This document shows, piece by piece, positions 8,331 through 63,634 of a DNA stretch of 64,000 bases. Position 1 is the stretch's first letter, and every line of letters begins with the position of its first letter. The position numbers and the translations under genes are program-made. The notes beneath the pieces are model-generated. The model was not told where the DNA came from, ran no database searches, and saw only the letters and a list, made by a program, of their open reading frames with translations. Source of the DNA: Polaribacter atrinae (lineage in GTDB: Bacteria > Bacteroidota > Bacteroidia > Flavobacteriales > Flavobacteriaceae); NCBI RefSeq assembly GCF_038023995.1, contig NZ_CP150660.1:2478501-2542500 (forward strand), written 5' to 3'.

Positions 8331-8394
8331 ATTTATAAAAGGCATTCTTTCTAGTTTTACCTTATGTATTTAATACGTAATAAGCTTCTAAGTC

Positions 8395-48613: not shown

Positions 48614-48683
48614 TACGTAAATTTTATAAAATTAAATATGTACAAATAAGTAATAATACTTAGTTTTGTAGTTTAAATACGTA
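48614..48683 (+). promoter_or_regulatory. nirB promoter with two TACGTA sites
   Basis: TACGTA lies at 48614-48619 (AATACGTAA) and 48678-48683 (AATACGTAA). The -7 box TAGTTTTG is at 48661-48668, so the first site sits near -57 and the second near the transcript start. Same motif pairs precede the response regulator and the nitrate transporter. Confidence 0.6.
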
Positions 48684-48686
48684 ATT

Positions 48687-51200
48687 ATGAAAACAATTAT
48701 AGTTGTAGGTAATGGAATGGTTGGTTATAAATTTTGTGAAAAATTTGTAGCAGCATCTGTAAATGAAGAATTTAAAGTTATTGTTTTTGGTGAAGAGCCA
48801 AGACCTGCTTACGATAGAGTCCATTTAAGTGAGTTTTTCGAAAACCAAGATGCAAAAGCTTTAGAGATGGCGCCTGCAGAATGGTATAAAGAAAATAAAA
48901 TCGATTTAATTGTTGATGAAAGAGTTTCCGACATTCAAAGAACTACAAAAACTATAATCACTGCCAAAAACAGAGTTTTTAATTACGATTACTTAGTTTT
49001 AGCAACAGGATCTTCTGCTTTTGTGCCGCCAATTAAAGGTGTAGAAAAAGAAGGAGTTTTTGTGTACAGAACTATAGAAGATTTAGAAGGGATGTTGGCG
49101 TATGCAGCAAATCTTAAGGAGAAGAATCCAAATGCAAGAGCTGCTGTTTTAGGTGGAGGTTTATTAGGTTTAGAAGCAGGTAAAGCTGTTATGGATATGG
49201 GTTTAGAGCCTCATATTATAGAGTTTGCGCCTAAATTAATGCCAAGACAATTAGATGCAAGAAGTAGTAAAGTATTGCAATTAAAATTAGAATCGATAGG
49301 ATTAAATATACATTTAAGTAAAGCAACGAACCAGATTTTAGGAGACGATGCTATTACGGGAATGGAGTTTGGCGAAGACGATGTTTTAGATGTAGAAATA
49401 TTAGTAGTTTCTGCAGGAATTCGTCCAAGAGATGAACTTGGTAAAACTTGTGGCTTAGAAATGGGCGTTCGTGGCGGAATTGTAGTTGACAATAAAATGA
49501 AAACTTCCGACGAAAACATCTTCGCAATCGGAGAAGTTGCTTTGTACAACCAAATGATTTATGGTTTGGTTGCTCCTGGTTACGATATGGCTGGTGTTGC
49601 AGTAAATCAGATTATTGGAAACACAGAAGAATTAATGCCAGCTGAGATTGACATGTCTACCAAATTAAAATTAATTGGTGTAGATGTAGCAAGTTTTGGA
49701 GAACCTTTTATGCCTGTATCTAAAGGACATTCTGTTATTTTCGAAAACAAAACACAACATTTATATAAAAGAATTAATGTTAGTTTAGATGGTAAATCTT
49801 TATTAGGAGGAATCTTAGTAGGGGATGCATCAGACTATAATATGTTGCATCAAGTATTTTTAAACGGAATGGCAATTCCAGAAGATGCTGCACAATTAAT
49901 TTTACCAGCAACAGAAGGCGGTGCTTTTGGTAGCGCACTAGATTTACCAGACGAGGCGCAAATTTGTTCTTGTGAGAATGTAAGTAAAGGTCAAATTTGT
50001 GGAGCTATCAAAGATGGTTCTTGCGAAGATTTAGCAGGCGTTATTGCATCAACAAAAGCAAGTACAAGTTGTGGTGGTTGTAAACCAATGGTTACAGATT
50101 TGGTTAACGAAACTTTAAAATCGTTAGGTAAAACGGTTAAAAATGTAATTTGCGAACATTTTGAATATAGCAGACAAGAATTATACGGAATTATAAAAGC
50201 TAAAAAATTAACTTCTTTTAATGAAGTTTTAGACGCTGCAGGAACCGGTCATGGTTGTGAAACTTGTAAGCCGTTAGTTTCTTCAATTTTTGCAAGTTTA
50301 TATAATGATACTCCAAATAAAGAAGACGTTACACAAGATACAAACGATAAATTTTTGGCAAACATACAACGTAACGGAACCTATTCTGTGGTGCCAAGAA
50401 TTGCAGGTGGAGAGCTAACGCCAGAGGATTTAATTGTTTTAGGACAAATAGGTTCGAAATATAATTTATATACAAAAATTACCGGTGGAGCGCGTATCGA
50501 TTTCTTTGGTGCAGAATTAAATGACTTACCAGCAATTTGGACAGAGTTAATTGATGCAGGTTTTGAAAGTGGTCATGCATACGGAAAATCTTTAAGAACT
50601 GTAAAAAGTTGTGTAGGTTCTACATGGTGTCGTTATGGTTTAGATGAAAGTATCACGTTTGCCATCGAACTAGAAAACAGGTATAAAGGATTGCGTTCTC
50701 CACATAAAATTAAAGGAGGTGTTTCTGGTTGTATCCGTGAATGTGCAGAAGCTAGAGGTAAAGATTTTGGAATTATTGCTGTAGAAGGTGGTTGGAATCT
50801 TTATGTGGGTGGAAACGGTGGTGCAACACCAAGACACGCACAGTTATTAGCCGAAAAAATAGACAATGAAACGGTTATAAAATATTTAGATCGTTACTTA
50901 ATTTATTACATACAAACAGCTGCTCCGTTAATGAGAACTGCTGCTTGGTTAGATAAATTAGAAGGCGGAATAGAGCAATTGAAAAAAGTGGTTATCGAAG
51001 ACAGTTTACATATTGTTGAAGATTTAGAAAAAGAGATGCAATTCTTAGTGGATGCTTACGAATGTGAGTGGAAACAAGCCATCGCAAACGAAGAAACAAA
51101 GAAACGTTTTCATCATTTTGTAAATTCAGATGATAGAGATGACAACTTAGTATTTGTGCCTTTACGTGATCAAAAAATGCCAGAACTCTGGAAAAATTAA
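48687..51200 (+). CDS. nirB: assimilatory nitrite reductase large subunit
   Basis: 837 residues. FAD-binding IIVVGNGMVGYKFCEKF at the N-terminus and NAD-binding AVLGGGLLGLEAGKAV near 155; two BFD-like [2Fe-2S] regions (CSCENVSKGQICGAI and a CxxC block at STSCGGCKPM, then GHGCETCKPL); and the C-terminal siroheme/[4Fe-4S] part with SCVGSTWCRYG and GGVSGCIRECAEARGKDFG carrying the four Cys ligands. Catalyses six-electron reduction of nitrite to ammonium with NAD(P)H. First gene of the nitrite operon; intact, unlike the nitrate reductase gene. Confidence 0.97.
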   Translation: MKTIIVVGNGMVGYKFCEKFVAASVNEEFKVIVFGEEPRPAYDRVHLSEFFENQDAKALEMAPAEWYKENKIDLIVDERVSDIQRTTKTIITAKNRVFNYDYLVLATGSSAFVPPIKGVEKEGVFVYRTIEDLEGMLAYAANLKEKNPNARAAVLGGGLLGLEAGKAVMDMGLEPHIIEFAPKLMPRQLDARSSKVLQLKLESIGLNIHLSKATNQILGDDAITGMEFGEDDVLDVEILVVSAGIRPRDELGKTCGLEMGVRGGIVVDNKMKTSDENIFAIGEVALYNQMIYGLVAPGYDMAGVAVNQIIGNTEELMPAEIDMSTKLKLIGVDVASFGEPFMPVSKGHSVIFENKTQHLYKRINVSLDGKSLLGGILVGDASDYNMLHQVFLNGMAIPEDAAQLILPATEGGAFGSALDLPDEAQICSCENVSKGQICGAIKDGSCEDLAGVIASTKASTSCGGCKPMVTDLVNETLKSLGKTVKNVICEHFEYSRQELYGIIKAKKLTSFNEVLDAAGTGHGCETCKPLVSSIFASLYNDTPNKEDVTQDTNDKFLANIQRNGTYSVVPRIAGGELTPEDLIVLGQIGSKYNLYTKITGGARIDFFGAELNDLPAIWTELIDAGFESGHAYGKSLRTVKSCVGSTWCRYGLDESITFAIELENRYKGLRSPHKIKGGVSGCIRECAEARGKDFGIIAVEGGWNLYVGGNGGATPRHAQLLAEKIDNETVIKYLDRYLIYYIQTAAPLMRTAAWLDKLEGGIEQLKKVVIEDSLHIVEDLEKEMQFLVDAYECEWKQAIANEETKKRFHHFVNSDDRDDNLVFVPLRDQKMPELWKN

Positions 51201-51232
51201 TTTTTTCAGGTACAAATAAAACGCACAGTTTT

Positions 51233-51318
51233 GTCATTTCGACATAAGGAGAAATCGTATAAAGTTGCTAAACATTATGTGTTCACTGTAATGTGACTTC
51301 TCTTAAAATCGAAGTGAC
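51233..51318. repeat. ~86-base MITE-like palindromic element
   Basis: Ends GTCATTTCGA and TCGAAGTGAC form 10-base inverted termini with one mismatch; inside, GGAGAAATC and GACTTCTC are a second inverted pair. Inserted between nirB and nirD. Confidence 0.75.
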
Positions 51319-51398
51319 AGAACGTTTTAAAATAACATTTTAAATCTCAATTATTTTTAACAAGACTACTTAATTGAACAGAAATAACAAATATAATT

Positions 51399-51776
51399 AT
51401 GGACACATTACTTTTAAAATACAAAACAGTAAAAGAAGCAGAAGTAAAGGTTTGGTTTAAAGCCGCTCCAGTAAGTGCGTTTCCAAAAGATGGTGGTGCG
51501 TGTGTAAAGTACAAAGATTTACAAATTGCTGTTTTCAATTTTTCTAGATTAGATAAATGGTATGCATGTCAGAATTTATCACCAGAAAAACAAGAAATGG
51601 TGTTGTCTAGAGGTATGTTGGGCGATCATAAAGGGATTCCTAAAATTGCATGTCCTTTGCATAAAAAAACGTTTTCATTAGAAACTGGCGAAAATTTAAA
51701 TGCAGATTTAGCACCTATTGCTGTATATCCTATTAAGATTGAAGCAGAAAATGTGTATATTGGCTTCTCTGAATAA
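51399..51776 (+). CDS. nirD: assimilatory nitrite reductase small subunit
   Basis: 125 residues with a Rieske-like fold: KVWFKAAPVSAFPKDGG, FNFSRLDKWYACQN, VLSRGMLGDHKGIPKIACP and LHKKTFSLETGE. Of the Rieske ligands only the second pair (Cys and His in CPLHKK) is intact; the first pair is CQN with no His, so a [2Fe-2S] cluster is unlikely, as in other NirD proteins. Partner of NirB. Followed after 9 bases by the DUF4202 gene. Confidence 0.93.
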   Translation: MDTLLLKYKTVKEAEVKVWFKAAPVSAFPKDGGACVKYKDLQIAVFNFSRLDKWYACQNLSPEKQEMVLSRGMLGDHKGIPKIACPLHKKTFSLETGENLNADLAPIAVYPIKIEAENVYIGFSE

Positions 51777-51785
51777 AACTAAAAA

Positions 51786-52370
51786 ATGAAGCCTACAAGA
51801 TTTGAAACTGCTATTGCTATTATTGATAAAAAAAACGCAGAAGACCCAAACAATTACCAAGTTTCTGGATTAGAGTATCCTAAAGAATTATTATATTCTC
51901 AAAGGATGACTAGAAAGTTACTTCAGTTTGATCCAAATGCATCAAAAGCACTTCAAATTGCGGCAAGAGCACAACATATTTGTCGTTGGAAAATTGGAAG
52001 AAAAGAGTTTCCGATGGATAGAGTTGGGTACCTAAAATGGCGTGAAGAATTAAAAAAGATGCACGCAGAATTGACTGGAGAAATCTTAGAACAAGTTGGT
52101 TTTGATGCTCAATTTGTAGATAGAGTTCAGAAAATTATCTTAAAAAAACTCATCAAGAAAAACGAAGAATCTCAAACTTTAGAAGATGTTATTTGTCTAG
52201 TTTTTCTAGATTATTATTTTGATGAATTTGCAGCGAAACATAGCGATGAAAAAATCATTGATATTTTAAAGAAAACGTGGGTAAAAATGTCTGATAAGGG
52301 GCATGAAGCAGCTTTAAAAATACCATTTTCAGAAAAAAGTTTAGCGTTGGTAAAACAAGCCATTTCATAA
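51786..52370 (+). CDS. DUF4202-family protein
   Basis: 194 residues, cytoplasmic, mostly helical. AARAQHICRWKIGRKEFPMD is the most conserved part and has an HD-domain-like His arrangement (AQH, then the later LVFLDYYFDEF); YLKWREELKKMHAE follows. The family is known only by number and, as I recall, clusters with nitrate/nitrite assimilation genes; the same holds here between nirD (9 bases) and the sensor kinase (17 bases). Function unknown. Confidence 0.85.
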   Translation: MKPTRFETAIAIIDKKNAEDPNNYQVSGLEYPKELLYSQRMTRKLLQFDPNASKALQIAARAQHICRWKIGRKEFPMDRVGYLKWREELKKMHAELTGEILEQVGFDAQFVDRVQKIILKKLIKKNEESQTLEDVICLVFLDYYFDEFAAKHSDEKIIDILKKTWVKMSDKGHEAALKIPFSEKSLALVKQAIS

Positions 52371-52387
52371 TAAATGTAATCTAAATA

Positions 52388-54196
52388 ATGACTAAAAACG
52401 GCAATTCATTAGACCAAAGAACGTTTAATAAATTAAGCCGTTTGTATATTATTGCGTTAAGTGCCATTGCGCTTACAATAATTATCAGTCAAGTTTTAAT
52501 TCGCAATCATTTAGAAACTCAAAAAAGTGATTCTACCGTAATTAATGTTGCTGGTAGACAAAGAATGCTGAGTCAGAAATTAACCAAAGAAATTGTTTCC
52601 CTTTCTGATTATTCTGATAAAAAAAACAGACTTCGACTTAAAAATAATATCTCAGAAACTCTCTATTTATGGAAGTTATCGCACAATGCACTTCAAAAGG
52701 GAAATGACAGTTTAGGGCTTCCTGAACATAATAGCGATAAAATTAAAAGTGAATTTAAAGCGATTAATCCTGTTTTTAATACTATTGAAAAAGCTTCAAA
52801 AACAATTTTACAAAAGTTAGAAGATGCTACAATTTCTATTGATGAATTAGCATTCGAAATTGAAAAAGTAACCAAAAACGAAGGTTCTTTTTTATTGATG
52901 ATGGATGAAATTGTAAATCAATACAATGTAGAAGCCGATAAAAAAATAGCTTGGTTAAAAAAGTTAGAATTGTTTTTAATGTCTTGTACATTATTAATTC
53001 TTTTAGGAGAATTTTTATTCATTTTTTGGCCAACTGCAAAATCCGTAAAAGCAACACTCTCAGAATTATTATTTGCAGAAAAAAGAGCTAAAAAAATGGC
53101 TTTTGATGCAGATGAGCTAAGCCTTTCTAAAGAAAAATCAATAAAAGAATTACGTGCTTTAAGTCATGCGATGGATGAAACGTTGTTGTTTGCAAGAACT
53201 TCTCCAAGCGGCAATTTAATTCATATGGGAAATAAGTTTTCTCGTTTGTTTAAATTATCAAAATCGAACAAAGAAGTATTGATTTGGAATGTTTTATCTA
53301 ACAATGAAAACGAACAATTATTTATTGAAAATTTAATTAGTAAACATAAAAAAACAGGTTGGCAAGGAGAGGTAAAAGCAACCATAAAAGGAGATGTAGA
53401 TATTTGGTTAGAAATGTCTTTAGTGCCTTATAGACCAACAGAAGATAGGTCTGAATTGTTAATTATTGCTTCAGAAATTACCGAAAGAAAAGCGGCTCAA
53501 ACAGAAATTGAAAGACTTACAAAGGCCAATTTTGAAGAGAAAATGAGTCAGCAAAAAATAATCTCAAGCAAGATTATTGAAAATCAAGAAAAAGAACAAA
53601 ACAGAATTGCTAAAGACGTTCATGACGGAATTGGACAAATGCTTACAGGATTAAAATACAATCTAGAAAGCATCAATATGAATGATATTGAGAAAACAAC
53701 GTCTAAAATAGAACACCTAAAAGAATTAACCACCAACATTATAAAAGGAGTTAGAACCGCTACTTTTAACTTAACTCCGCCAGAATTATCAGATCACGGA
53801 ATTGTGCCTGCCATAACCAAATTAACACAAGAATTGGGTAGATTAACAGGTAAAGAAATTATGTTTTATAACAAAACAGATTTTAATGATCGTTTAGATT
53901 CTTTGGTTGAAATTAATATTTATAGAATTACCCAAGAAGCAATTAATAATGCTATTAAATATGCAGATTCTTCACATATTTTAGTGTCACTTTCTCACAG
54001 TAAAAATATTTTAAGTATTGTTATTGATGATGATGGCCAAGGTTTTGAACCATCGAAAGTAAAGAAAGTAAAAAACGGAGATGGAGGCATGGGAATGACC
54101 TTTATGAAAGAAAGAATTAAATATATTGATGGTCGTTTATTCTTAAATTCAGAATTAGGAAAAGGGACAAGAGTTACTTTGAATATTCCTATTTAA
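52388..54196 (+). CDS. NarX-like sensor histidine kinase with PilJ-type sensor
   Basis: 602 residues. Transmembrane helices at about 18-38 and 190-213 flank a periplasmic helical sensor beginning INVAGRQRMLSQKLTKEIV (residues 52-70), the PilJ/NarX-type motif that resembles the nitrate-binding P-box region of NarX. Then a PAS domain (about 255-370), a HisKA_3 dimerisation helix with phosphoacceptor His412 (AKDVHDGIGQMLTG) and an HATPase domain (ITQEAINNAIKYA, DDDGQGFEPS, GGMGMTFMKERI). This is the kinase class that pairs with NarL-type regulators such as the one at 54383. Likely senses nitrate or nitrite. Confidence 0.9.
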   Translation: MTKNGNSLDQRTFNKLSRLYIIALSAIALTIIISQVLIRNHLETQKSDSTVINVAGRQRMLSQKLTKEIVSLSDYSDKKNRLRLKNNISETLYLWKLSHNALQKGNDSLGLPEHNSDKIKSEFKAINPVFNTIEKASKTILQKLEDATISIDELAFEIEKVTKNEGSFLLMMDEIVNQYNVEADKKIAWLKKLELFLMSCTLLILLGEFLFIFWPTAKSVKATLSELLFAEKRAKKMAFDADELSLSKEKSIKELRALSHAMDETLLFARTSPSGNLIHMGNKFSRLFKLSKSNKEVLIWNVLSNNENEQLFIENLISKHKKTGWQGEVKATIKGDVDIWLEMSLVPYRPTEDRSELLIIASEITERKAAQTEIERLTKANFEEKMSQQKIISSKIIENQEKEQNRIAKDVHDGIGQMLTGLKYNLESINMNDIEKTTSKIEHLKELTTNIIKGVRTATFNLTPPELSDHGIVPAITKLTQELGRLTGKEIMFYNKTDFNDRLDSLVEINIYRITQEAINNAIKYADSSHILVSLSHSKNILSIVIDDDGQGFEPSKVKKVKNGDGGMGMTFMKERIKYIDGRLFLNSELGKGTRVTLNIPI

Positions 54197-54207
54197 AACA
54201 CAATCTT

Positions 54208-54294
54208 ATCATTTCTACTTTAGGAGAAATCTTATAACAGTGATTGTCAAAAATAGCGCAATATTATGTGATTTCTCACTGCGTTCGAAATGAC
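54208..54294. repeat. ~87-base MITE-like palindromic element
   Basis: Left end ATCATTTCTA and right end TTCGAAATGAC are inverted with few mismatches; internal GGAGAAATC and GATTTCTC are also inverted. Same family as 45482-45568 and 51233-51318; lies between the kinase and response regulator genes. Confidence 0.7.
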
Positions 54295-54329
54295 AAACTA
54301 GTGCATTATAAAACTCCTCACCAGATAAA

Positions 54330-54366
54330 TACGTAGTTTTACTTAAAAACCTTATTTTTGTACGTA
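54330..54366 (+). promoter_or_regulatory. response regulator promoter with two TACGTA sites
   Basis: TACGTA at 54330-54335 and 54361-54366, 31 bases apart. An exact -7 box TATTTTTG is at 54353-54360, so the sites lie near -34 and at the transcript start; suggests autoregulation of the regulator gene. Confidence 0.6.
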
Positions 54367-54382
54367 TAAAATAGTTGCAATT

Positions 54383-55042
54383 ATGATAAATGTAGTTTTA
54401 GCAGACGACCACGTTTTGGTAAGAGATGGAATAAAAGCACTTTTAGAAGATCAATCAGGAATTACCGTAATTGATGAAGCTTCTAACGGAAAAGAGGCTT
54501 TAGAAGTTATTGCTAAAAATAAACCTCATGTACTTATTGTAGATATTCGTATGCCAGAAATGAACGGAATTGAAGTGGTTGCAGAAATTACAAAACAGAA
54601 AATAGATGTAAAAACCTTAGTGCTTTCTATGCACGATTCTGAAGAGTATGTTTTAAAATCTATACAAGCAGGTGCAGATGGGTATTTGTTAAAAGGAGCT
54701 AGTAAAGAAGAGTTTTTAAAAGCGGTAAATAATGTAGCCGCTGGCGATAAGTATTTTACGGGTGATGTTTCTACCATTATAATGAACAACTTTGTAAGCG
54801 GAAAAACGAGTAAAGTTATTGAGGAGCAAAAAGAAGTTAAAGTTGCGCCTTTTAAACTAACTAAAAGAGAAAGACAAATACTTAATTTAGTTTTAGAATT
54901 AAAGAATAATAAAGATATTGCAGAAGAATTGTCTATTAGTAAGCGTACTGCAGAGGTGCATCGTTTTAATTTAATGAAGAAATTAGAGGCTAAAAACCTA
55001 CAAGAATTAACAAATAAGGCCAAAGAGTATCAGTTGATATAG
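54383..55042 (+). CDS. NarL/FixJ-type response regulator
   Basis: 219 residues. Receiver domain with acidic pair in VVLADDHVLVRDG, phosphoacceptor Asp54 (LIVDIRMPEMNG) and the conserved Lys in YLLKGASKEE; LuxR/GerE helix-turn-helix at about 152-215 (LTKRERQILNLVLELKNNKD, IAEELSISKRTAEVHRFNLM). Cognate regulator of the kinase at 52388 by position and type. TACGTA palindromes at its own promoter, at nirB and at the transporter are candidate binding sites. Confidence 0.95.
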   Translation: MINVVLADDHVLVRDGIKALLEDQSGITVIDEASNGKEALEVIAKNKPHVLIVDIRMPEMNGIEVVAEITKQKIDVKTLVLSMHDSEEYVLKSIQAGADGYLLKGASKEEFLKAVNNVAAGDKYFTGDVSTIIMNNFVSGKTSKVIEEQKEVKVAPFKLTKRERQILNLVLELKNNKDIAEELSISKRTAEVHRFNLMKKLEAKNLQELTNKAKEYQLI

Positions 55043-55063
55043 GTCTTTTGATTGTAAATATAT

Positions 55064-55240
55064 CTGTGTAATAACTCACCGCAAAGTTTTCAAAGTTATA
55101 TCGCCAAGGGCACAAAGAAAAAAACCTCAGTGCATCTCTTTGTTTCTCCGTGAGTCTCTGTGTAATAACTCACCGAAAAGTTCACAAAGTTATATCGCCA
55201 AGGACGCAAAGAAAAAACCTCAGTACATCTCTATGCGGCA
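55064..55240. repeat. 94-base direct repeat, two copies
   Basis: CTGTGTAATAACTCACCG starts at 55064 and again at 55158; the units share AAAGTTATATCGCCAAGG, CAAAGAAAAAA and CCTCAGT.CATCTCT. The unit also carries complementary words (CTTTGTG-like and CACAAAG). It resembles a CACAAAG-rich intergenic repeat I remember from many Bacteroidetes. No open frame. Confidence 0.75.
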
Positions 55241-55248
55241 ATTAATGC

Positions 55249-55428
55249 TTATTTTTTTGTTTGATTTTTCTTTAACTTATCAATTACAAATACACTGTAT
55301 ATCATAATTAACAAGCCAAGAATCATAGCGCTATATTGTAAAGTTTTATAATCAGCTAAAAATGTCATTCCGAGTGTTGAAAGTGCCATTCCAACCACAA
55401 ATAGATTTATTCCTTTATTATTTTTCAT
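55249..55428 (-). CDS. small two-span membrane protein (hypothetical)
   Basis: 59 residues from ATG 55428 (MKNNKGINLFVVG); an in-frame ATG seven codons upstream is possible. Two hydrophobic segments (INLFVVGMALSTLGMTFLAD and YSAMILGLLIMIYSVFVID) and a Lys-rich tail (KLKKNQTKK) give a sensible membrane topology. No recognised family. It lies alone between repeats and the nitrate transporter promoter. Confidence 0.5.
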   Translation of the reverse strand: MKNNKGINLFVVGMALSTLGMTFLADYKTLQYSAMILGLLIMIYSVFVIDKLKKNQTKK

Positions 55429-55587
55429 TTTTGTTCCGTTTATTTTCAATTGATTAGTAGTCTAATTGAACTATTTGTTACACTTTACCTTTTGATTTTA
55501 AATTGAATAGAACAATTTGTTGGAATACACCTTTTTCATAACAATTATTTTTCAACTCCAATTTTATCATATTCTTAAATTCAATAC

Positions 55588-55665
55588 TACGTAATTATTA
55601 ATCTACTAATAATTATAAAATACGTATTTTTTAGTATAATAATTAAGTATTTATACTTATTTTTG
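55588..55665 (+). promoter_or_regulatory. nitrate transporter promoter with two TACGTA sites
   Basis: TACGTA at 55588-55593 and 55621-55626 (AAATACGTATTT, fully palindromic), 33 bases apart. Exact -7 box TATTTTTG at 55658-55665; sites centre near -80 and -46, the usual place for an activator. ATG at 55686. Confidence 0.65.
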
Positions 55666-55685: not shown

Positions 55686-57110
55686 ATGATAAATCTATCT
55701 CAAGAAAAATCTACAAAATTAAGTTTATTCGATTTTAAGAATGTATCCACTCGTACATTTTGGATTACATCAATATCATTCTTTTTATGCTTTTTTGCAT
55801 GGTTTGGTATTGTACCTTTTATGCCAGATGTTGTAAAAGATTTAGGCTTAACACCAGATCAAAAATGGAATTCAATTATTTTAGCCGTTTCAGGAACCGT
55901 ATTTGCACGTTTACTAATTGGTAAATTATGTGATAAATACGGACCAAGATTATGTTATACATGGTTGCTAATGTTAGGTGCAATTCCTGTTGTTTTATGT
56001 GGATTAGTACAAACACCAACGCAATTTTTAGTTTGTAGATTATTTATTGGTTTTATTGGAGCTTCCTTTGTAATTACACAAGTACATACTTCTTTAATGT
56101 TTGCACCAAATATTGTAGGAACCGCAAATGCAACTTCTGCAGGTTGGGGTAACTTAGGTGGTGGCGCAAATAGATTAGGTATGCCTTTAATTGCAGCAGC
56201 AGTGGTTGCTTTTGGTGTTGCAGACGGAGAGGCTTGGAGATATTCTATGGTTATTGCTGGTATTGTTTGTTTTTTAATGGGTATTGTATATTACTTATTT
56301 ACAACAGATACACCAAAAGGAAACTTTGGCGAATTAAAAGCAGCTGGAGAAATGGTTGTTACTAAAAAAGACCAAATAGGATTTTTAGAAGTATTAAAAG
56401 ATTATAGAGTTTGGATTCTTTTTGTAGTATATGCTGCAAGTTTTGGAATTGAATTAACAGTGTATGGAACTATGGATGATTATCTTCAGAATACGTTTCA
56501 ATTACAAAGAGTAACAGCTGGTAACATTGTATTGTCTTTTGCATTGATGAATATTTTTGCAAGAACTTTAGGTGGTTTCTTTGGAGATAAATTTGGTAAG
56601 TTAAAAGGATTGAGAGGTCGTGTTTTATTCTTGTCTTTCATCTTAACCTTACAAGGAGTTATGTTGATCTTTTTCTCTGGAGCTACAAGTCTTGTTTTAG
56701 GAGTTGTTTTATTAATATTATTTAGTTTAAGTGTACAAATGGCAGAAGGAGCAACGTTTTCTGTAGTGCCATTTATCAATAAAAAAGCCATTGGTTCTGT
56801 TTCTGGAATTGTTGGAGCAGGAGGAAATGTTGGTGCATTTTTAGCAGCAATGTTATTAAAATCTAAATCTTCATTGGCAGAAAAAGCAGCCATTGTATCT
56901 AGCGAAGGTTTAGGAGATGAGGTTATTAAGGCAGCGCAATCTGCAGCTTCTTCAAGTGCCGTTGCAAACGGATATTTATTAATTGGTTTTGTGATTGTTG
57001 CTACGGGTATTGCAGCGTTAGCAATTAAGTTTTCTACAGAAGAAGAAGATGAAACAGAAAAAATAAATGGTTTATCACCAGAGTTGATACCAATTAAAGT
57101 AAAAAGATAA
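55686..57110 (+). CDS. nitrate/nitrite MFS transporter, NarK/NasA type
   Basis: 474 residues from ATG 55686 (MINLSQEKSTKLSLFDF); a GTG seven codons upstream lies inside the promoter region. Twelve hydrophobic segments. The nitrate signature GNLGGGANRLGMPLI in the first half and the second nitrate-signature-like GIVGAGGNVGAFLAAML in the second half are the NarK/NRT2 hallmarks, with the conserved Arg in ARLLIGKLCDKYGPR. Imports nitrate, possibly exporting nitrite. Next downstream is the nitrate reductase gene. Confidence 0.93.
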   Translation: MINLSQEKSTKLSLFDFKNVSTRTFWITSISFFLCFFAWFGIVPFMPDVVKDLGLTPDQKWNSIILAVSGTVFARLLIGKLCDKYGPRLCYTWLLMLGAIPVVLCGLVQTPTQFLVCRLFIGFIGASFVITQVHTSLMFAPNIVGTANATSAGWGNLGGGANRLGMPLIAAAVVAFGVADGEAWRYSMVIAGIVCFLMGIVYYLFTTDTPKGNFGELKAAGEMVVTKKDQIGFLEVLKDYRVWILFVVYAASFGIELTVYGTMDDYLQNTFQLQRVTAGNIVLSFALMNIFARTLGGFFGDKFGKLKGLRGRVLFLSFILTLQGVMLIFFSGATSLVLGVVLLILFSLSVQMAEGATFSVVPFINKKAIGSVSGIVGAGGNVGAFLAAMLLKSKSSLAEKAAIVSSEGLGDEVIKAAQSAASSSAVANGYLLIGFVIVATGIAALAIKFSTEEEDETEKINGLSPELIPIKVKR

Positions 57111-57264: not shown

Positions 57265-60200
57265 ATGATTAAAAATGAAATTAAAACAACGTGTTCTTAT
57301 TGTGGAGTAGGTTGCGGAATTATCGTAAAAAAAGACATGAACAACAAGGTTTTTGTTGAAGGAGATAAAGACCATCCTGTTAACAAAGGGATGTTGTGTT
57401 CTAAAGGAATGAACTTGCATTATGTTGCAAATGATACTTCAGACAGAATTTTATATCCAGAAATGCGTTGGAGTCGTTCTCATCCGCGTGAGCGTGTTTC
57501 TTGGGATACTGCTTTAGATAGAGCTGCCAGCGTTTTTAAATCAATTATAAAAAACATGGTCCAGATTCTGTAGTGTTTTACGTTACCGGACAAAGTTTAA
57601 CAGAAGAATATTACATTGCTAATAAACTGACAAAAGGGTTTTTAGGAACCAATAATATAGACACCAACTCACGTTTATGTATGAGTTCTGCTGTGGTTGG
57701 TTATAAAAAAACATTCGGAGAAGATAGTGTGCCAATTTCGTACGACGATATAGAATTAGCTGATACTTTTTTAATAACAGGTGCAAATCCTGCTTGGTGT
57801 CATCCAATTTTGTTTAGGCGAATTGAAAAACGCAAAGAAGAAAATCCGAAGGTAAAAGTAATTGTAATTGATCCACGTAAAACAGATTCTGCAAAATTTG
57901 CAGATTTGCATTTGCAATTAACACCAGGAACCGACGTTGTTTTATACAATGCTATTGGTAGGTGTTTGTACAAAAGTGGTTTAATTGATGAAGATTTTAT
58001 TAAGAACCACACACAAGGTTTTGATGGTTATAAAGAAGTTATTTTTGGAACGACTTTAAAACAAGCGTCTAAAATTTGTGGAGTTCCTGCAAAAGAAATT
58101 CAGAAAGCTGCAGAAATGATTGGTCTTTCTAAAGGCTTTATCAGTATGTGGGCAATGGGTTTAAACCAAAGTGTAATTGGTACAGACAAAAACACATCAC
58201 TTTTAAATTTATCATTAATAACTGGTCAGGTTGGTAAACCTGGTGCAGGTCCTTTTTCATTAACGGGTCAGCCAAATGCAATGGGCGGACGAGAAGTTGG
58301 TGGAATGGCAAACTTGTTAGCGGTTCATAAAGATTTAGGAAACGAAGAACATAGAAGAGAAGTTGCACAATTTTGGGGAGTAGATAAAATATCTGCAAAA
58401 CCAGGATTAACAGCAACAGAATTATTTGATGCTTTAGAAAGCGGAAAGGTAAAAGCGGTATGGATTGCGAGTACAAATCCTTTGGTGAGTATGCCAAATT
58501 CTCATCAAATAGAAAAAGCCATGGCAAAATCTAAATTTGTGGTGGTACAAGAAATTTCTCATAAAGCAGATACTTTAAATTATGCAGATTTGGTGTTGCC
58601 AGCTGCTGCGTGGTTAGAAAAAGAAGGTACCATGACAAATTCTGAAAGAAGAATTTCTTATTTACCAAAAGAAATTGAAGCGCCAGGAGAAGCAAGACCA
58701 GATGTAGAGATTTTCTGTGATTTTGCACAAAGAATGGGCTTTAGAGGTTTTAATTATAATGGTGCAGAAGAAATTTATGATGAATATGCTTCGATGACCA
58801 AAGGAACAAATATTGATGTTTCTTTTTTAAATTATGATCGATTAAAAAACGAAGGTACTTTTCAGTGGCCCGTAAATGAATATAGAAGTAAAGGAACGCC
58901 ACGTCTTTTTGAGGATAAAAAGTTTTATACACCTTCTCAAAAAGCAATTTTTAATGTTCCATCAACCATAGAAAATACATCAGTAAAAACGAATGACGAG
59001 TTTCCGTTAATTTTAACCACAGGTCGTGTTAGAGATCAGTGGCACACGATGACCAAAACAGGAAAAGTAGCAAGATTAAAAACACATTATCCAAAACCTG
59101 TTTTAGAAATAAATCCTGTAGATGCGTATTTAAATAAAATTAAGGACGGAGATATTACAGAGATAAAAAGTGCTAACGGAGTTGTTAGAGTACGTGCAAA
59201 AATTACAGACGAAATTAAAGAAGGCGTTGTTTTCTTACCAATGCATTGGGGTAAAGTGCTAAATAGTAATTTAAATAGAGCTAATAATTTAACCAATACA
59301 CATATAGATCCGGTTTCTAAAGAGCCAGATTTTAAATTTACATCGGTTTCAGTTTCAAAATATAAAAAACCGAAAGACAAAATTATTATTGCAGGTGCTG
59401 GAGCTGCCGCTTTTAGATTTTTACAAAATTATAGAGATTATAACGAGGTGGATGAAATTCATGTTTTTTCTAAGGAATCTAACTTGTTTTACAACCGTGT
59501 TTTATTACCAGAATATATTACAGAAGAACTTTCTTGGGAGCAATTATTAAAAATAAAAAATGCTGAATTAAAGAATTTAAATATTAAAATTCACCCAGAA
59601 ACAATTATAGAAAAAATTGATAAAGAGACTAAAATTGTTACAGATTCTAACGGTGAAACTCATTCGTTTGATAAGTTAATTTTAGCAACCGGAAGTAGAC
59701 CTTTTATACCTAAAGATGTGCAAATAGATTTACCAGGTCGTTTTACCATGCGTAATAAAAATGATGCAGATCGATTTAAAAATTATTTAGATGCTACAGG
59801 TTTACCGCCAGAAGAACAACATGTTGTAATTGTTGGTGGAGGTTTGTTAGGTTTAGAGTTGGCTGCAGCGATGAAGCACAAGAATGTAAAAATCACTATT
59901 ATTCAGCGTGCATCTAGATTAATGGAACGTCAATTAGATAAAATTTCTAGTAAATTATTATCAATAAACGTACAAGAAAGAGGGATTCAAATTTATTTTG
60001 ATAATGAAGTAAGTACTGTTTTTTGATGATGAAGATACAGGTGAATTAACCATCAACCTAAAAAGTGGAAAATACATTTCAGCCAATGCAATTGTGTATG
60101 CAATTGGTACAAGACCCAATATAGAAATTGCTAAAAATAACGGTATTGTTTGCGGGCGAGGCGTAAAGGTAAATCAGCATTTACAATCTTCTCATCCAGA

Positions 60201-60786
60201 TATTTTTGCGATTGGAGAAATTGCCGAATTCAATAATAAATTATTTGGTATTACCTCTGCAGCAGAAGAACAAGCAGGCATTTTAGCCAATTTTATTGCA
60301 GGCGATATTAGTGAGGCTTACAAAGGTTCTGTGCTAATGAATATTCTAAAATTTAGCGATTTAAACTTGTGTAGTATTGGCGAGATTTCTGTTCCGGATA
60401 ACGACCCAAGTTACGAGGAAATTATTTTTACAGATATTTCTAAAGGATATTATAAGAAGTGTATTGTAAAAGATGATTTACTAATTGGTGCCGTTTTAGT
60501 AGGTGATAAAAATGAATTTGCAGAGTTTAAAACCTTAATTGAAAGCAAGATTGAAATGTCTGACAAACGAGATACTTTGTTAAGAGGCGCATCTAATGAT
60601 GCACCTGTTTTAGGAAAATTAGTTTGTTCTTGTAGCCAAGTAGGAGAAGGAAATATTGAAGAAGCCATTGCTAAAGGATGTTCTAATTTTACGGAATTAT
60701 GTAACAAAACAGGCGCAGGTTTAGGGTGTGGAAGTTGTAAAACGGAAGTAAGAGAAATTTTGAACAATGCAAAAGTAACAGTATGA
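57265..60786 (+). pseudogene. nasA: assimilatory nitrate reductase with two frame disruptions
   Basis: Intended product about 1173 residues. N-terminal [4Fe-4S] ligands Cys10, Cys13, Cys17 and Cys45 (CSYCGVGCG, MLCSKG), then the molybdopterin guanine dinucleotide enzyme domain (TGQPNAMGGREVGGMANL; TTGRVRDQWHTMTKTG), a NirB-like flavoprotein part (IIIAGAGAAAFRFLQNY; IVGGGLLGLELAAAM) and a C-terminal BFD-like [2Fe-2S] module (CSCSQVGEGNIEEAI; GLGCGSCKTE). The frame stops at 57573: one more A in the A6 run near 57549-57554 restores IIKKHGPDSVVFYVTGQ. It breaks again at 60026: one fewer T in the T6 run near 60019-60024 restores STVFDDEDTGEL. Assembly error or real loss cannot be told here. Confidence 0.9.
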
Positions 60787-62215
60787 GCGAGCAGTTAAAT
60801 AGAATCATTGTAAGAGGTGGAGTTTTATCTCCTGGAGAACTAAAGTACATTTGTGAATCTGTAGAAAGTTTGGGCTTAAAAACCATTTCTTTTGGATCTA
60901 GACAAGATATTTTATTACCTAAAAATGTAAATCAAGAAGAGTTAGCTCAATTTGATAAATTAAAAATTGTAGAAACCGATAAAACAGGTGTAGAAAATAT
61001 TGTTTCGTCTTATGTTTGTGCAGATATTTTTCCGAGTACGTCTTGGTTAACCGGAGATAGATATTTATATCTTTTAGAACAATTTAGCACAGAATCTAAA
61101 TTAAAAATAAATTTAACAGATCCAAAACAGCGTTTGGTTCCTTTGTTACAGGGAATATAAACTTTATCGCTTCAGAACACGAAGATTATTGGTATTTGTA
61201 TGTCAGGCTTCCAGATTGGAAAAAAACACAAATGTACCCTGCTTTAATTTATAGTTGGGATTTAGATAAGATTGAAACTGCTATTGAAAACGTTCTTCAA
61301 GAAGAGCCAGAAACCATCGAAATGATTTTCGATTTGGTAAGTGATGCCGTAGATACCAATAATAGAACGGTAGATAAACCTTTAGAAGTGCCTTTTTACC
61401 CTTTTCCTTATTTTGAAGGAATGAACAAAATTGGTATGGATAAATACTGGTTAGGTTTGTATTGGAGAAACAATAAATATGATATTTCTTTCTTAAAAGA
61501 AATGTGCGAATTGTGTTCTGAAAATAAGATTGGTAAAATTTCTATTACACCTTGGAAATCTTTTGTGGTGAAAGGGATTCCGAAAGAATCTAAACTGGTT
61601 TGGGAGAAGTTTTTAGGGAAGCGAGGAATCATTGTACGCCATTCTATGTTAGAGTTAAATTGGCATATTCCTGTAGCTAATAAAGATGCTTTAAATTTAA
61701 AGAAATACTTGGTTTCTAATTTCGATCAAAACGATATTAGTACGTATGGTTTAACCTTCGGAATTACAGATTATAGCAAAGCAGCTTATTATTTTACATC
61801 GATAGTTGTCGAAAAAAATAAACAACCAGAAATGATTGGCAACTTTCAAACAAGAGATACGTATAATCTTTTGTATGCTAAAAATTTCGATCCAAATACA
61901 AGGCAATATATTATGCACGTTCAAGACGTGGATAAAGTAGAATTACCAGGTTTGTTAATGGAATTAAGTCAGTTGTATTTTGATCAATTAGGAAGTGAAA
62001 TAGAAGCAGAAAAAGAAGTTGAGGTACAAAAAGAAACCACAGAATTAGAAGTTTATCAATGTAAAGATTGTTTAACAATTTACGATGAAGCCTTTGGCGA
62101 TATTACTCAAAATATCCCTGCAGAAACCCTTTTTAGTACGCTTCCAGAAAGCTATGAATGTTCGCTTTGTGAAGCTCCAAAATCTAGTTTCCAAAAAGCA
62201 GTATTGGTTAAATAA
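60783..62215 (+). pseudogene. ferredoxin-reductase-like rubredoxin protein, frameshifted
   Basis: The ATG overlaps the nitrate reductase stop (ATGA), so the two genes are coupled. The first frame (60783-61160) carries an N-terminal nitrite/sulfite-reductase ferredoxin-like half domain (IIVRGGVLSPGELKYI) and stops after VPLLQGI. One extra T in the TT at about 61146-61147 restores VPLFTGNINFIASEHEDYW and a 477-residue protein. A second ferredoxin-like half (IPVANKDALNLKKYLVS) follows, and the C-terminus is a rubredoxin domain with two CxxC knuckles (CKDC; CSLC). Likely carries electrons to the nitrate reductase; that role is inferred from position. Confidence 0.82.
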
Positions 62216-62362: not shown

Positions 62363-63634
62363 ATGAAAAAACAATACGTAATTTTAGGGTTAATGTTAGT
62401 ATGCTTTCAATTTGCAAAAGCACAATTTACTTTAGATGGAGAATTTAGACCACGTACAGAATATAGAAACGGATTTGGAAGTTTAATTCCGGATGCTTCT
62501 GATGCTGGTTTTGGAATTTCGACAAGAGTGCGTTTAAATACCAGCTACATGACAGACAATTATTGGGTGTACGTAAGTTTACAAGATGTAATGGTGTGGG
62601 GAGAAAACAGACAAATTTTACCTTATGATCAAAATAATTCTTTTGCAATTTTTCAGGCTTGGGCAGAGCTTAAACTGGGTGAGAATACATCTACAAGAGT
62701 TGGTCGTCAAGTATTATCTTATGATGATCAACGAATTTTAGGAGGATTAGATTGGGCACAACAAGGTAGAAACCACGATGCAGCTTTACTTAAATATAAA
62801 AAGGATAGTTTTATGTTAGATGTTGCGTTAGCATTTAATCAAGATTACTCAAACCCAACAGGTTTTCAATCTGCAGGTACTGCATACAATACAACAGGTT
62901 ATTTTTCATATAAAACCATGCAAATGTTATATATGAAACAAAAATGGGAGAAATTAACAGGTAGTTTATTATTGTTAAATAACGGATTTCAAGAATTTGA
63001 TGCTGTATCAGGAGAAGCAGACGGCGTAAGTAATTTACAAACCTTAGGAACACATTTAGATTATAAATCTGGTAGTTTTGGTTTGTCTGCAAATGCTTTT
63101 TTACAGACAGGTAAGCGTCAAGGAAATGTAGATGTAAAAGGAGCGTATTTGGTTGGTTTAGATGCAACGTATAAAGTAGCTCCAAAAGTAAGTTTAGGAT
63201 TAGGTATAGAAGCTATTAGTGGTAATGATGGTGCTGCAGGAGAAACGGGAGCATTTTTTCCATTATATGGAACAAATCATAAATTTAATGGTTTTATGGA
63301 TTATTTTTATGTGGGTAATCATGCAAACTCAATTGGTTTGGTAGATCTTCATGTAAGTGCAAACTTCATTTTAAATGAATCTTCTAGTTTACTAGTAAAA
63401 GCACTTAATTTTAGAGGAGAACAAGCATTAGCAAGTGGAGAGAAATCTTTAGGAACAGAAATAGATTTAGTGTACAAAAAGAACTTTAAAGGATATTCTT
63501 TAGTACTTGGATATTCTCAAATGTTTGCAAGCGATGGTATGTATGAATTAAAAGGAGTTACAGAAGCTGCTGCTGCAAATAATCAAAATTGGGCTTGGGC
63601 AATGTTGGTAATTAAGCCAAAATTTTTAAACTAG
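62363..63634 (+). CDS. outer-membrane porin, alginate-export (AlgE-like) family
   Basis: 423 residues from ATG 62363 (MKKQYVILGLMLVCFQF, cleavage after AKA); the frame extends 16 codons upstream without a hydrophobic start. The mature part begins FTLDGEFRPRTEYRNGFG, then SDAGFGISTRVRLNTSY, DNYWVYVSLQDVMVWGE and ARQGRNHDAALLKYK-like strands of an 18-stranded barrel, ending with the aromatic strand AWAMLVIKPKFLN. At the end of the nitrate cluster it probably admits nitrate or another anion; specificity is inferred from context only. Confidence 0.85.
   Translation: MKKQYVILGLMLVCFQFAKAQFTLDGEFRPRTEYRNGFGSLIPDASDAGFGISTRVRLNTSYMTDNYWVYVSLQDVMVWGENRQILPYDQNNSFAIFQAWAELKLGENTSTRVGRQVLSYDDQRILGGLDWAQQGRNHDAALLKYKKDSFMLDVALAFNQDYSNPTGFQSAGTAYNTTGYFSYKTMQMLYMKQKWEKLTGSLLLLNNGFQEFDAVSGEADGVSNLQTLGTHLDYKSGSFGLSANAFLQTGKRQGNVDVKGAYLVGLDATYKVAPKVSLGLGIEAISGNDGAAGETGAFFPLYGTNHKFNGFMDYFYVGNHANSIGLVDLHVSANFILNESSSLLVKALNFRGEQALASGEKSLGTEIDLVYKKNFKGYSLVLGYSQMFASDGMYELKGVTEAAAANNQNWAWAMLVIKPKFLN

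What the first reader, a model, noticed from the sequence alone, without database searches (positions are those of the whole stretch)
48614..55665. TACGTA palindrome pairs mark a probable nitrate/nitrite regulon
Two TACGTA sites sit at each of three promoters: nirB (48614, 48678), the NarL-like regulator (54330, 54361) and the nitrate transporter (55588, 55621), each with an exact TAnnTTTG -7 box. Most extend to AATACGTA(A/T)T. Elsewhere almost all TACGTA copies I found are inside genes; the only other intergenic one noted is at 8374. By base composition about one per 2.9 kb is expected, so six in about 230 bases is striking. The motif differs from the E. coli NarL heptamer. It is a good candidate for the operator of the NarL-like protein at 54383.
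Basis: partly seen in the sequence, partly recalled or inferred. Interest (0 to 1): 0.72.

Follow-up and report, generated by a model that had tools for sequence, protein, structure and literature searches.

The report
Nitrate-response operators in marine Bacteroidota
Short palindromes in front of three nitrate-use genes look like pieces of a landing site for a nitrate-responsive switch protein, and the same site lies in front of the same genes in many related bacteria that carry that protein.

Summary
Two TACGTA sites sit at each of the nirB, response-regulator (RR) and narK promoters, each with an exact TAnnTTTG box; six in 976 intergenic bases is far above chance. The suggested extension AATACGTAWT fits 2 of 6 sites and shows no genome-wide excess.

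TACGTA is best read as a half-site of a 16-bp operator, TAMGTA-N4-TACKTA. The window's only three exact dyads lie at these promoters. In 80 named loci, 280 upstream regions of nirB/RR/narK/nasA/porin genes hold 160 dyads; 274 of nirD/DUF4202/kinase/sir hold none. Half-sites are spaced in steps of 10.5 bp and phased with the -7 box. In the genus, the dyad fused to the -7 box occurs in 15 of 16 genomes with the sensor kinase and 0 of 42 without. nirB upstreams lack TACGTA in 9 of 9 genomes without an orthologous kinase-RR pair, and in three with a changed RR recognition helix.

The kinase carries the published nitrate N-box. The RR's helix and site resemble FixJ's, not the NarL heptamer. RR binding is inferred, not shown; activation versus repression is open.

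The parts
48614..48619 (.). TACGTA half-site, nirB promoter, inferred -59 to -54
   Evidence: at 72-74 bases before the ATG in 9 of 15 genus relatives
48647..48662 (.). 16-bp operator dyad TAAGTAATAATACTTA, nirB promoter, inferred -26 to -11, its last TA shared with the -7 box
48661..48668 (+). -7 box TAGTTTTG of nirB
   Evidence: consensus and position from PMC9723704
48678..48683 (.). TACGTA half-site between inferred start of transcription and the nirB ATG (+6 to +11)
   Evidence: 9 or 10 bases before the ATG in 13 of 15 genus relatives
48687..51200 (+). nirB, nitrite reductase large subunit
   Evidence: Pfam and NCBIfam TIGR02374
51399..51776 (+). nirD, nitrite reductase small subunit
   Evidence: TIGR02378
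51786..52370 (+). DUF4202 protein, function unknown, conserved in the cluster
   Evidence: PF13875
52388..54196 (+). sensor histidine kinase: PilJ (nitrate N-box INVAGRQRMLSQ), weak PAS match, HisKA_3, HATPase_c
   Evidence: N-box pattern from PMC6381276
54330..54345 (.). 16-bp operator dyad TACGTAGTTTTACTTA, RR promoter, inferred -35 to -20
54353..54360 (+). -7 box TATTTTTG of the RR gene
54361..54366 (.). TACGTA half-site at inferred -4 to +2 of the RR gene
54383..55042 (+). NarL/FixJ-type response regulator, proposed binder of the operator
   Evidence: Response_reg + GerE
55588..55593 (.). TACGTA half-site, narK promoter, inferred -82 to -77
   Evidence: same distance (98) in 6 of 11 genus relatives with narK
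55621..55626 (.). TACGTA half-site, narK promoter, inferred -49 to -44
   Evidence: at 63-65 before the ATG in 9 of 11
55644..55659 (.). 16-bp operator dyad TAAGTATTTATACTTA, narK promoter, inferred -26 to -11, fused to the -7 box
55658..55665 (+). -7 box TATTTTTG of narK
55686..57110 (+). NarK-family nitrate/nitrite transporter
   Evidence: MFS_1; TIGR00886 303.8 bits, just under its cut-off of 311.7
57265..60786 (+). nasA-type nitrate reductase fused to a NirB-like reductase part; interrupted here by one-base frameshifts, one open frame in L039; inferred to be read from the narK promoter

Best explanation
The TACGTA pairs are half-sites of the operator of the response regulator encoded at 54383, the output half of a nitrate-sensing two-component system (kinase at 52388). 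The operator is a 16-bp inverted repeat, TAMGTA-N4-TACKTA, plus extra TACGTA/TAMGTA half-sites lying on one face of the helix. Proposed working: nitrate binds the PilJ/N-box domain of the kinase and changes its activity; the phosphorylated RR dimerises and binds the dyad and neighbouring half-sites at nirB, its own gene and narK(-nasA-sir), setting nitrate uptake and assimilation and the RR's own level. Shown here by sequence: operator structure, conservation, helical phasing with itself and with the -7 box, and dependence on presence and recognition helix of the RR. Inferred: physical binding, nitrate as signal. Least certain: the sign. I take nitrate-dependent activation as more likely (about 0.6), because the dyad keeps fixed helical register with the -7 box and extra half-sites lie in phase upstream; at nirB and the RR gene the half-site at or past the start may add a brake.
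For: Positions and excess over chance. Ranking of all 6-mers: TACGTA first (mean fraction 0.79 of nirB/RR/narK/porin upstreams, 0.05 of control upstreams), TAAGTA third. Dyad spacing: k=4 gives 160 in 280 promoters, 0 in 274 controls; with TAAGTA/TACTTA only, 67 at k=4 and at most 6 at any other k from 0 to 31. TACGTA spacing peaks at 10.5 bp, R 0.57, null maximum 0.19. Dyad fused to the -7 box: nirB 52 of 75, narK 18 of 45; in the genus 15 of 16 kinase-bearing and 0 of 42 other genomes. Trans test: G209 and G251 carry the RR on another contig yet have TACGTA at nirB. Negative test: 0 of 9 genomes without the orthologous pair have TACGTA or a dyad at nirB. Specificity: of 75 nirB upstreams, 74 have at least two half-sites; the one without, L159, has a changed helix, as do G485 and G542, which lack TACGTA and dyad. 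The HTH is closer to FixJ (2.4e-10) than to NarL (2.3e-5 at best), and the site resembles FixJ's TAAGTAATTTCCCTTA (PMC4999443). N-box exact in 74 of 79 kinases.
Against: No binding or expression data. The nine negative genomes belong to other families than the window's, so distance is partly confounded with absence; one of them, G575, holds a 41% identical RR elsewhere, and G575 and G485 each have two TAAGTA-type half-sites at nirB without TACGTA or dyad. Single half-sites are not rare in controls: DUF4202 21 of 71, HK 10 of 79, nirD 8 of 78, sir 6 of 46. RR upstreams have TACGTA in only 3 of 18 loci where the kinase is under 50% identical, and an exact dyad in 21 of 71 overall. nasA has its own TACGTA in 12 of 57 loci; the window's nasA and porin genes have none upstream. 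One kinase-bearing genus genome (G044) lacks the fused element; the reversed control pattern hit 2 of 58 genomes once each, and one of the 30 fused matches (G039) lies inside an ORF. The dyad at -26 to -11 overlaps the core promoter, which by position also suits a repressor. EsrB's HTH matches better (7.1e-16) than FixJ's. The sensor profile hit McpN but not the NarX or NarQ structures.
Confidence: 0.82

Rival explanations
1. Same operator and same RR, but the RR is a repressor: without nitrate the phosphorylated RR covers the -33/-7 spacer and the start of nirB and narK; nitrate switches the kinase to phosphatase and frees the promoters.
For: Dyad at -26 to -11 and half-sites at or past the start of nirB and the RR gene overlap ground that RNA polymerase needs; a TACGTA begins 9 or 10 bases before the nirB ATG 43 times over 75 loci.
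Against: Fixed register of 0 or about 10 bp with the -7 box and phased upstream half-sites are not needed for simple blocking; characterised NarX-type kinases are switched on by nitrate (recalled).
Confidence: 0.33
2. TACGTA is itself the complete dimer site (each monomer reading TAC), and the 10-bp spacing reflects neighbouring dimers rather than two halves of one site.
For: TACGTA alone is palindromic and many promoters have isolated copies; G474 has six copies before nirB and no exact dyad.
Against: TAAGTA-N4-TACTTA, in which neither half is palindromic, is fixed at N4 and in inverted orientation (67 against at most 6 at any other spacing); the FixJ site has the same 16-bp outline.
Confidence: 0.15
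3. Another transcription factor (for example a Crp/Fnr-type or nitrogen regulator) binds the motif and the RR merely lives nearby.
For: One relative has the composite operator in front of a Crp/Fnr-type gene, so other regulators may be wired into the network.
Against: TACGTA at nirB is kept where this RR is unlinked, absent in 9 of 9 genomes without the pair, and absent where its recognition helix is changed.
Confidence: 0.05
4. Chance or base composition in AT-rich intergenic DNA.
For: TACGTA is common in these loci: 730 copies in 1.65 Mb, second of 24 palindromes of its composition.
Against: P about 1e-6 in the window alone; conservation across families; at nirB, RR, narK and porin upstreams the best of the 23 other palindromes reaches 8 of 75, 7 of 71, 5 of 45 and 4 of 32.
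Confidence: 0.01

Closest known systems
NarX/NarL and NarQ/NarP nitrate two-component systems (E. coli)
   Same: Nitrate-binding P-box/N-box type sensor kinase with HisKA_3; RR with receiver plus GerE domain, whose best solved full-length match is NarL (1a04, 1.9e-32); cluster holds nitrate genes.
   Different: Kinase shows PAS and no HAMP or GAF in Pfam, as reviewed for Bacteroidetes nitrate kinases (PMC8199190); operator is not the TACYYMT 7-2-7 (consensus recalled): 0 exact in 280 promoters.
FixJ of rhizobia
   Same: Recognition helix (SKRTAEVHRFNLMKKL against SPRTVEVHRANVMAKM) and site: SELEX class GTAMGTAG and TAAGTAATTTCCCTTA (PMC4999443 passages); TAAGTAATAATACTTA at nirB agrees with the latter in 12 of 16 bases.
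   Different: Partner kinase has a nitrate-type sensor rather than the oxygen sensor of FixL; symmetrical dyads, arrays of phased half-sites, fusion to the Bacteroidota -7 box; whole RR far below the FixJ family cut-off.
Bacteroidetes cluster of nitrate-sensing histidine kinases (PMC8199190)
   Same: HAMP- and GAF-less, in part PAS-bearing nitrate kinases beside nitrate genes; this kinase fits that description.
   Different: The passages and the one section I read describe kinases and neighbourhoods, not the DNA sites of their regulators.

Membership tests
Nitrate-sensing histidine kinases (NarX/NarQ-like sensor, Bacteroidetes group) | PilJ/NarX-like sensor with nitrate N-box [IVL]-[ND]-x-A-G-x-Q-R-M-L-[ST]-Q | tested here: met
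   INVAGRQRMLSQ in the window kinase; 74 of 79 relatives exact, four of the other five with S for the A; PilJ profile 57.7 bits; McpN 6gcv best solved match, 6.2e-5
Nitrate-sensing histidine kinases (NarX/NarQ-like sensor, Bacteroidetes group) | Binds nitrate | not testable with these tools
   needs protein
E. coli-type NarX | HAMP and GAF-like domains between membrane and DHp | tested here: not met
   Pfam lists PilJ, PAS_9 (under its cut-off), HisKA_3 and two HATPase models only; agrees with PMC8199190 for Bacteroidetes
NarL/FixJ response regulator superfamily | Receiver plus GerE (LuxR-type) HTH | tested here: met
NarL (E. coli orthologue) | Reaches NCBIfam NarL equivalog cut-off | tested here: not met
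   143.6 bits against 250
NarL (E. coli orthologue) | 7-2-7 heptamer operator TACYYMT-N2-AKRRGTA (consensus recalled) | tested here: not met
   0 exact in 280 promoters; no exact match in the window, where up to 2 mismatches give 22 matches, one of them at narK
FixJ | Reaches NCBIfam FixJ equivalog cut-off | tested here: not met
   94.3 bits against 255
FixJ | DNA site of FixJ outline TAAGTAAT-N4-CTTA / TAMGTA | tested here: met
   exact at 48647; 15 exact in 280 promoters, 0 in 274 controls
FixJ | Partner is the oxygen-sensing FixL | tested here: not met
   partner kinase has a PilJ nitrate-type sensor

The most novel reading that the evidence does not exclude
A phylum-wide promoter design in Bacteroidota: a nitrate two-component regulator with a FixJ-type reading head binds a dyad wedged into the -33/-7 spacer, its last TA being the first TA of the -7 box, and activates RNA polymerase from that place, helped by half-sites phased at 10.5 bp up- and downstream; nitrate signalling and FixJ-type DNA recognition have been combined in one lineage.
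Probability: 0.35. Interest if true: 0.66.

Novelty: new variant of a known kind. Interest (0 to 1): 0.5.

Why it matters
A 2021 review (PMC8199190; passages and one section seen) shows a large Bacteroidetes branch of nitrate-sensing kinases and lists their role in the different organisms as open. These sequences give a matching DNA code, so the regulon can be read from genomes of marine bacteria that take up nitrate, and a simple promoter test can settle how the switch works. It also offers a Bacteroidota promoter where regulator site and -7 box share bases in fixed register. Ten full-text searches listed no paper that I recognised as describing this operator; only open-licence papers are held, several lists were cut (for example 15 of 67), and most papers were seen as titles and abstract starts only.

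Tried and rejected
AATACGTAWT as the operator: 2 of 6 sites, no genome-wide excess. NarL 7-2-7: no exact match. nirB without the kinase inside the family: in 249 family genomes the 63 with nirB are the same 63 with a kinase match, but 4 of those matches cover only the C-terminal part, and two of the four (G209, G251) lie on another contig than nirB; controls therefore came from the phylum set, where 31 of 392 have nirB and 20 the kinase at E 1e-70. The pair pattern TACGTA-N24..28-TACGTA is no marker alone: 26 of 58 genus genomes have a match, and the reversed control also hits in most genomes; in the own genome its 2 matches are the RR and narK pairs. Other exact dyads in the own genome: 7 in all (control 2), 3 in this cluster; of the other four two lie inside ORFs, one between convergent ORFs, and one (1687737) just before a small ORF, which alone could be a further target. 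Literature led nowhere on the operator. No structure prediction was run.

Statistics caveats: loci are related, so counts are not independent; P values treat them as if they were. Shuffles keep single-base composition only; the null draws uniform distances; the phase test against the -7 box includes dyad halves, which are 10 bp apart by construction. Usable upstreams out of 80 loci: nirB 75, RR 71, narK 45, nasA 57, porin 32, nirD 78, DUF4202 71, HK 79, sir 46; others were dropped for missing gene, contig end, low identity or an alignment starting far from the N-terminus. In one search the phase test used 134 distinct promoters with a single -7 box (377 half-sites) and the spacing test 312 TACGTA pairs from distinct promoters. 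In one search one of 80 kinases was not scored because its match began late. In control upstreams some other palindromes are common (up to 19 of 71), as expected of conserved coding DNA.
Full report
WHAT WAS CLAIMED AND WHAT IS THERE. The window holds 21 TACGTA against 9.2 (sd 3.0) in dinucleotide shuffles; those outside the six are in reading frames of 100 aa or more except 8374. Six in 976 intergenic bases is not chance. The proposed extension AATACGTAWT fits two of the six sites and is not enriched in the 4.01-Mb genome.

GENES. nirB (48687), nirD (51399), DUF4202 (51786), kinase (52388), RR (54383), narK-type transporter (55686), a nasA-type reductase fused to a NirB-like part (57265-60786), a protein with weak NIR_SIR_ferr matches and a rubredoxin end (60783-62215) and an Alginate_exp-type outer-membrane protein (62363). 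The set looks like nitrate uptake and assimilation. Contigs shared with named records make the genus Polaribacter very likely (119,490-base and 965,487-base contigs).

GENUS TEST. 15 of 57 other genomes searched in the genus carry the kinase. In their loci the sites recur at like distances: TACGTA 9 or 10 bases before the nirB ATG in 13 of 15 and 72-74 before it in 9 of 15; before narK 63-65 in 9 and 98 in 6 of the 11 with narK; before the RR mostly at 21-22 and 52-55. The middle nirB site, about 40 before the ATG, is TACGTA in L039, L040 and L045 and TAAGTA in most others. L052 and L053, the most distant, have altered layouts. L053 lacks a narK hit and has a site 74 bases before nasA instead.

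THE OPERATOR. Ranking all 6-mers without prior choice puts TACGTA first and TAAGTA third. Testing TAMGTA-Nk-TACKTA for k from 0 to 31 gives 160 at k=4 in 280 promoters and none in 274 controls; the next peaks (k=24-27, 33 to 44 each) I read as spacing between neighbouring sites. TAAGTA-Nk-TACTTA gives 67 at k=4 and at most 6 elsewhere. So the unit is a 16-bp dyad with half-sites one helical turn apart, and TACGTA is the half-site that reads the same on both strands. A dyad is present in 66 of 75 nirB, 40 of 45 narK, 16 of 32 porin, 21 of 71 RR and 7 of 57 nasA upstreams. The window's only exact dyads are at the three promoters.

PHASING AND PROMOTER. Distances between TACGTA sites have a spectral peak at 10.5 bp (R 0.57; uniform null maximum 0.19), and half-sites show the same period relative to the -7 box (R 0.73; 0.51 on distinct gene-offset pairs). 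With TAnnTTTG at -12 to -5 (PMC9723704, passages) the nirB and narK dyads lie at -26 to -11, sharing TA with the box; the RR dyad is at -35 to -20. The fused form occurs in 52 of 75 nirB, 18 of 45 narK, 5 of 57 nasA, 2 of 32 porin and 1 of 71 RR upstreams; RR dyads sit 9 bp (12 cases) or 8, 10, 11 or 12 bp (7 cases) from the box. In the genus TAMGTA-N4-TACKTA-NN-TTTG is found in 15 of 16 kinase-bearing genomes (not G044) and 0 of 42 others; the reversed control hits twice in 58 genomes. In the own genome it occurs twice, at nirB and narK. Two of the 30 matches lie away from this cluster: G039, inside an ORF, and G029, before a Crp/Fnr-type gene.

WHO BINDS IT. Among 392 phylum genomes 31 have nirB and 20 the kinase. 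Of the 11 with nirB only, 9 have no kinase-RR hit beside nirB and 0 of 9 have TACGTA or a dyad in the 200 bases before nirB. Two (G485, G542) have a diverged pair beside nirB and likewise no TACGTA or dyad. A genome-wide RR search at 1e-45 found one further RR (41% identical, helix VRTVDAHRRNLL) among the nine, in G575; G575 and G485 have two TAAGTA-type half-sites each. G474, with an RR of 49% identity and helix RRTVETHRFNMM, has six TACGTA before nirB. G209 and G251 keep the RR on another contig with helix KRTIETHRFNLMKKL and keep TACGTA at nirB. The nirB upstreams lacking TACGTA among the 75 are L142 and L146, which have the full TAAGTA-N4-TACTTA dyad, and L159, which has no half-site and whose RR reads VRTIDNHRASMM. 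G485 and G542 RRs are also changed (VRTVDNHRANMM, PNTVANQRASII). Presence and specificity of the operator thus follow this RR, with the caveat that all nine negative genomes are from other families.

WHAT IT RESEMBLES. Full-length RR: NarL best (1.9e-32). HTH alone: EsrB 7.1e-16, FixJ 2.4e-10, NarL 2.3e-5 and 2.9e-5. FixJ's site TAAGTAATTTCCCTTA and SELEX class GTAMGTAG (PMC4999443, passages) share the outline; TAAGTAATNNNNCTTA is exact at 48647. The NarL 7-2-7, recalled, is absent in exact form.

SIGNAL. The kinase has a PilJ sensor with the nitrate N-box defined for McpN (PMC6381276, passages), exact in the window and in 74 of 79 relatives; the McpN structure is the best solved match of the sensor profile (6.2e-5), while NarX and NarQ structures were not hit. 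It fits the HAMP- and GAF-less, partly PAS-bearing Bacteroidetes nitrate kinases of PMC8199190 (passages and one section).

MECHANISM. Shown by sequence: the operator, its conservation, phasing and dependence on the RR. Inferred: nitrate as signal, phosphorylation-driven binding, control of nirB, RR and narK(-nasA-sir). Open: sign of control. I favour nitrate-dependent activation, with repression as the serious rival. Autoregulation is a feature mainly of nearer relatives: TACGTA at the RR gene in 20 of 21 loci with kinase identity of 70% or more, 6 of 10 at 60-70%, 18 of 22 at 50-60%, 3 of 18 below 50%.

NOVELTY. Two-component nitrate control and FixJ-type sites are both known; their combination, the fused -7 box layout and the phylum-wide regulon appear undescribed in what I could search. 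I file it as a new variant of a known kind.

Noticed in passing
57265-62215: nasA and the following NIR_SIR_ferr/rubredoxin gene are split by one-base frameshifts in the window, while the corresponding parts lie in one open frame in L039: recent decay or sequencing error.
   Followed up: partly
55063-55217: Two 61-base direct repeats (92% alike, 94 apart) in the RR-narK gap; the HK-RR and RR-narK gaps vary in length between relatives.
   Followed up: no
51786-52370: DUF4202 gene sits between nirD and the kinase in most relatives and near the unlinked RR in G209 and G251; a possible functional partner of the system.
   Followed up: no
L186:1501-1522: In one relative (G029) the composite operator lies just upstream of a Crp/Fnr-type regulator gene, near a multihaem-cytochrome-like gene: the regulon may reach a second regulator.
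   Followed up: partly
genomes G209, G251, G259, G059 (L160-L163, L176-L179): The kinase match covers only the C-terminal part (from about residue 190-250), so the PilJ sensor seems missing or unrecognised, yet the RR and TACGTA at nirB are kept.
   Followed up: no
62363-63634: Alginate_exp-type outer-membrane protein; its homologues carry TACGTA upstream in 22 of 32 loci although this copy does not: a possible nitrate porin of the regulon.
   Followed up: no
L148: A record titled Rickettsiales MAG carries this Bacteroidota-like cluster with TACGTA sites; probably a mis-binned or misnamed genome.
   Followed up: no
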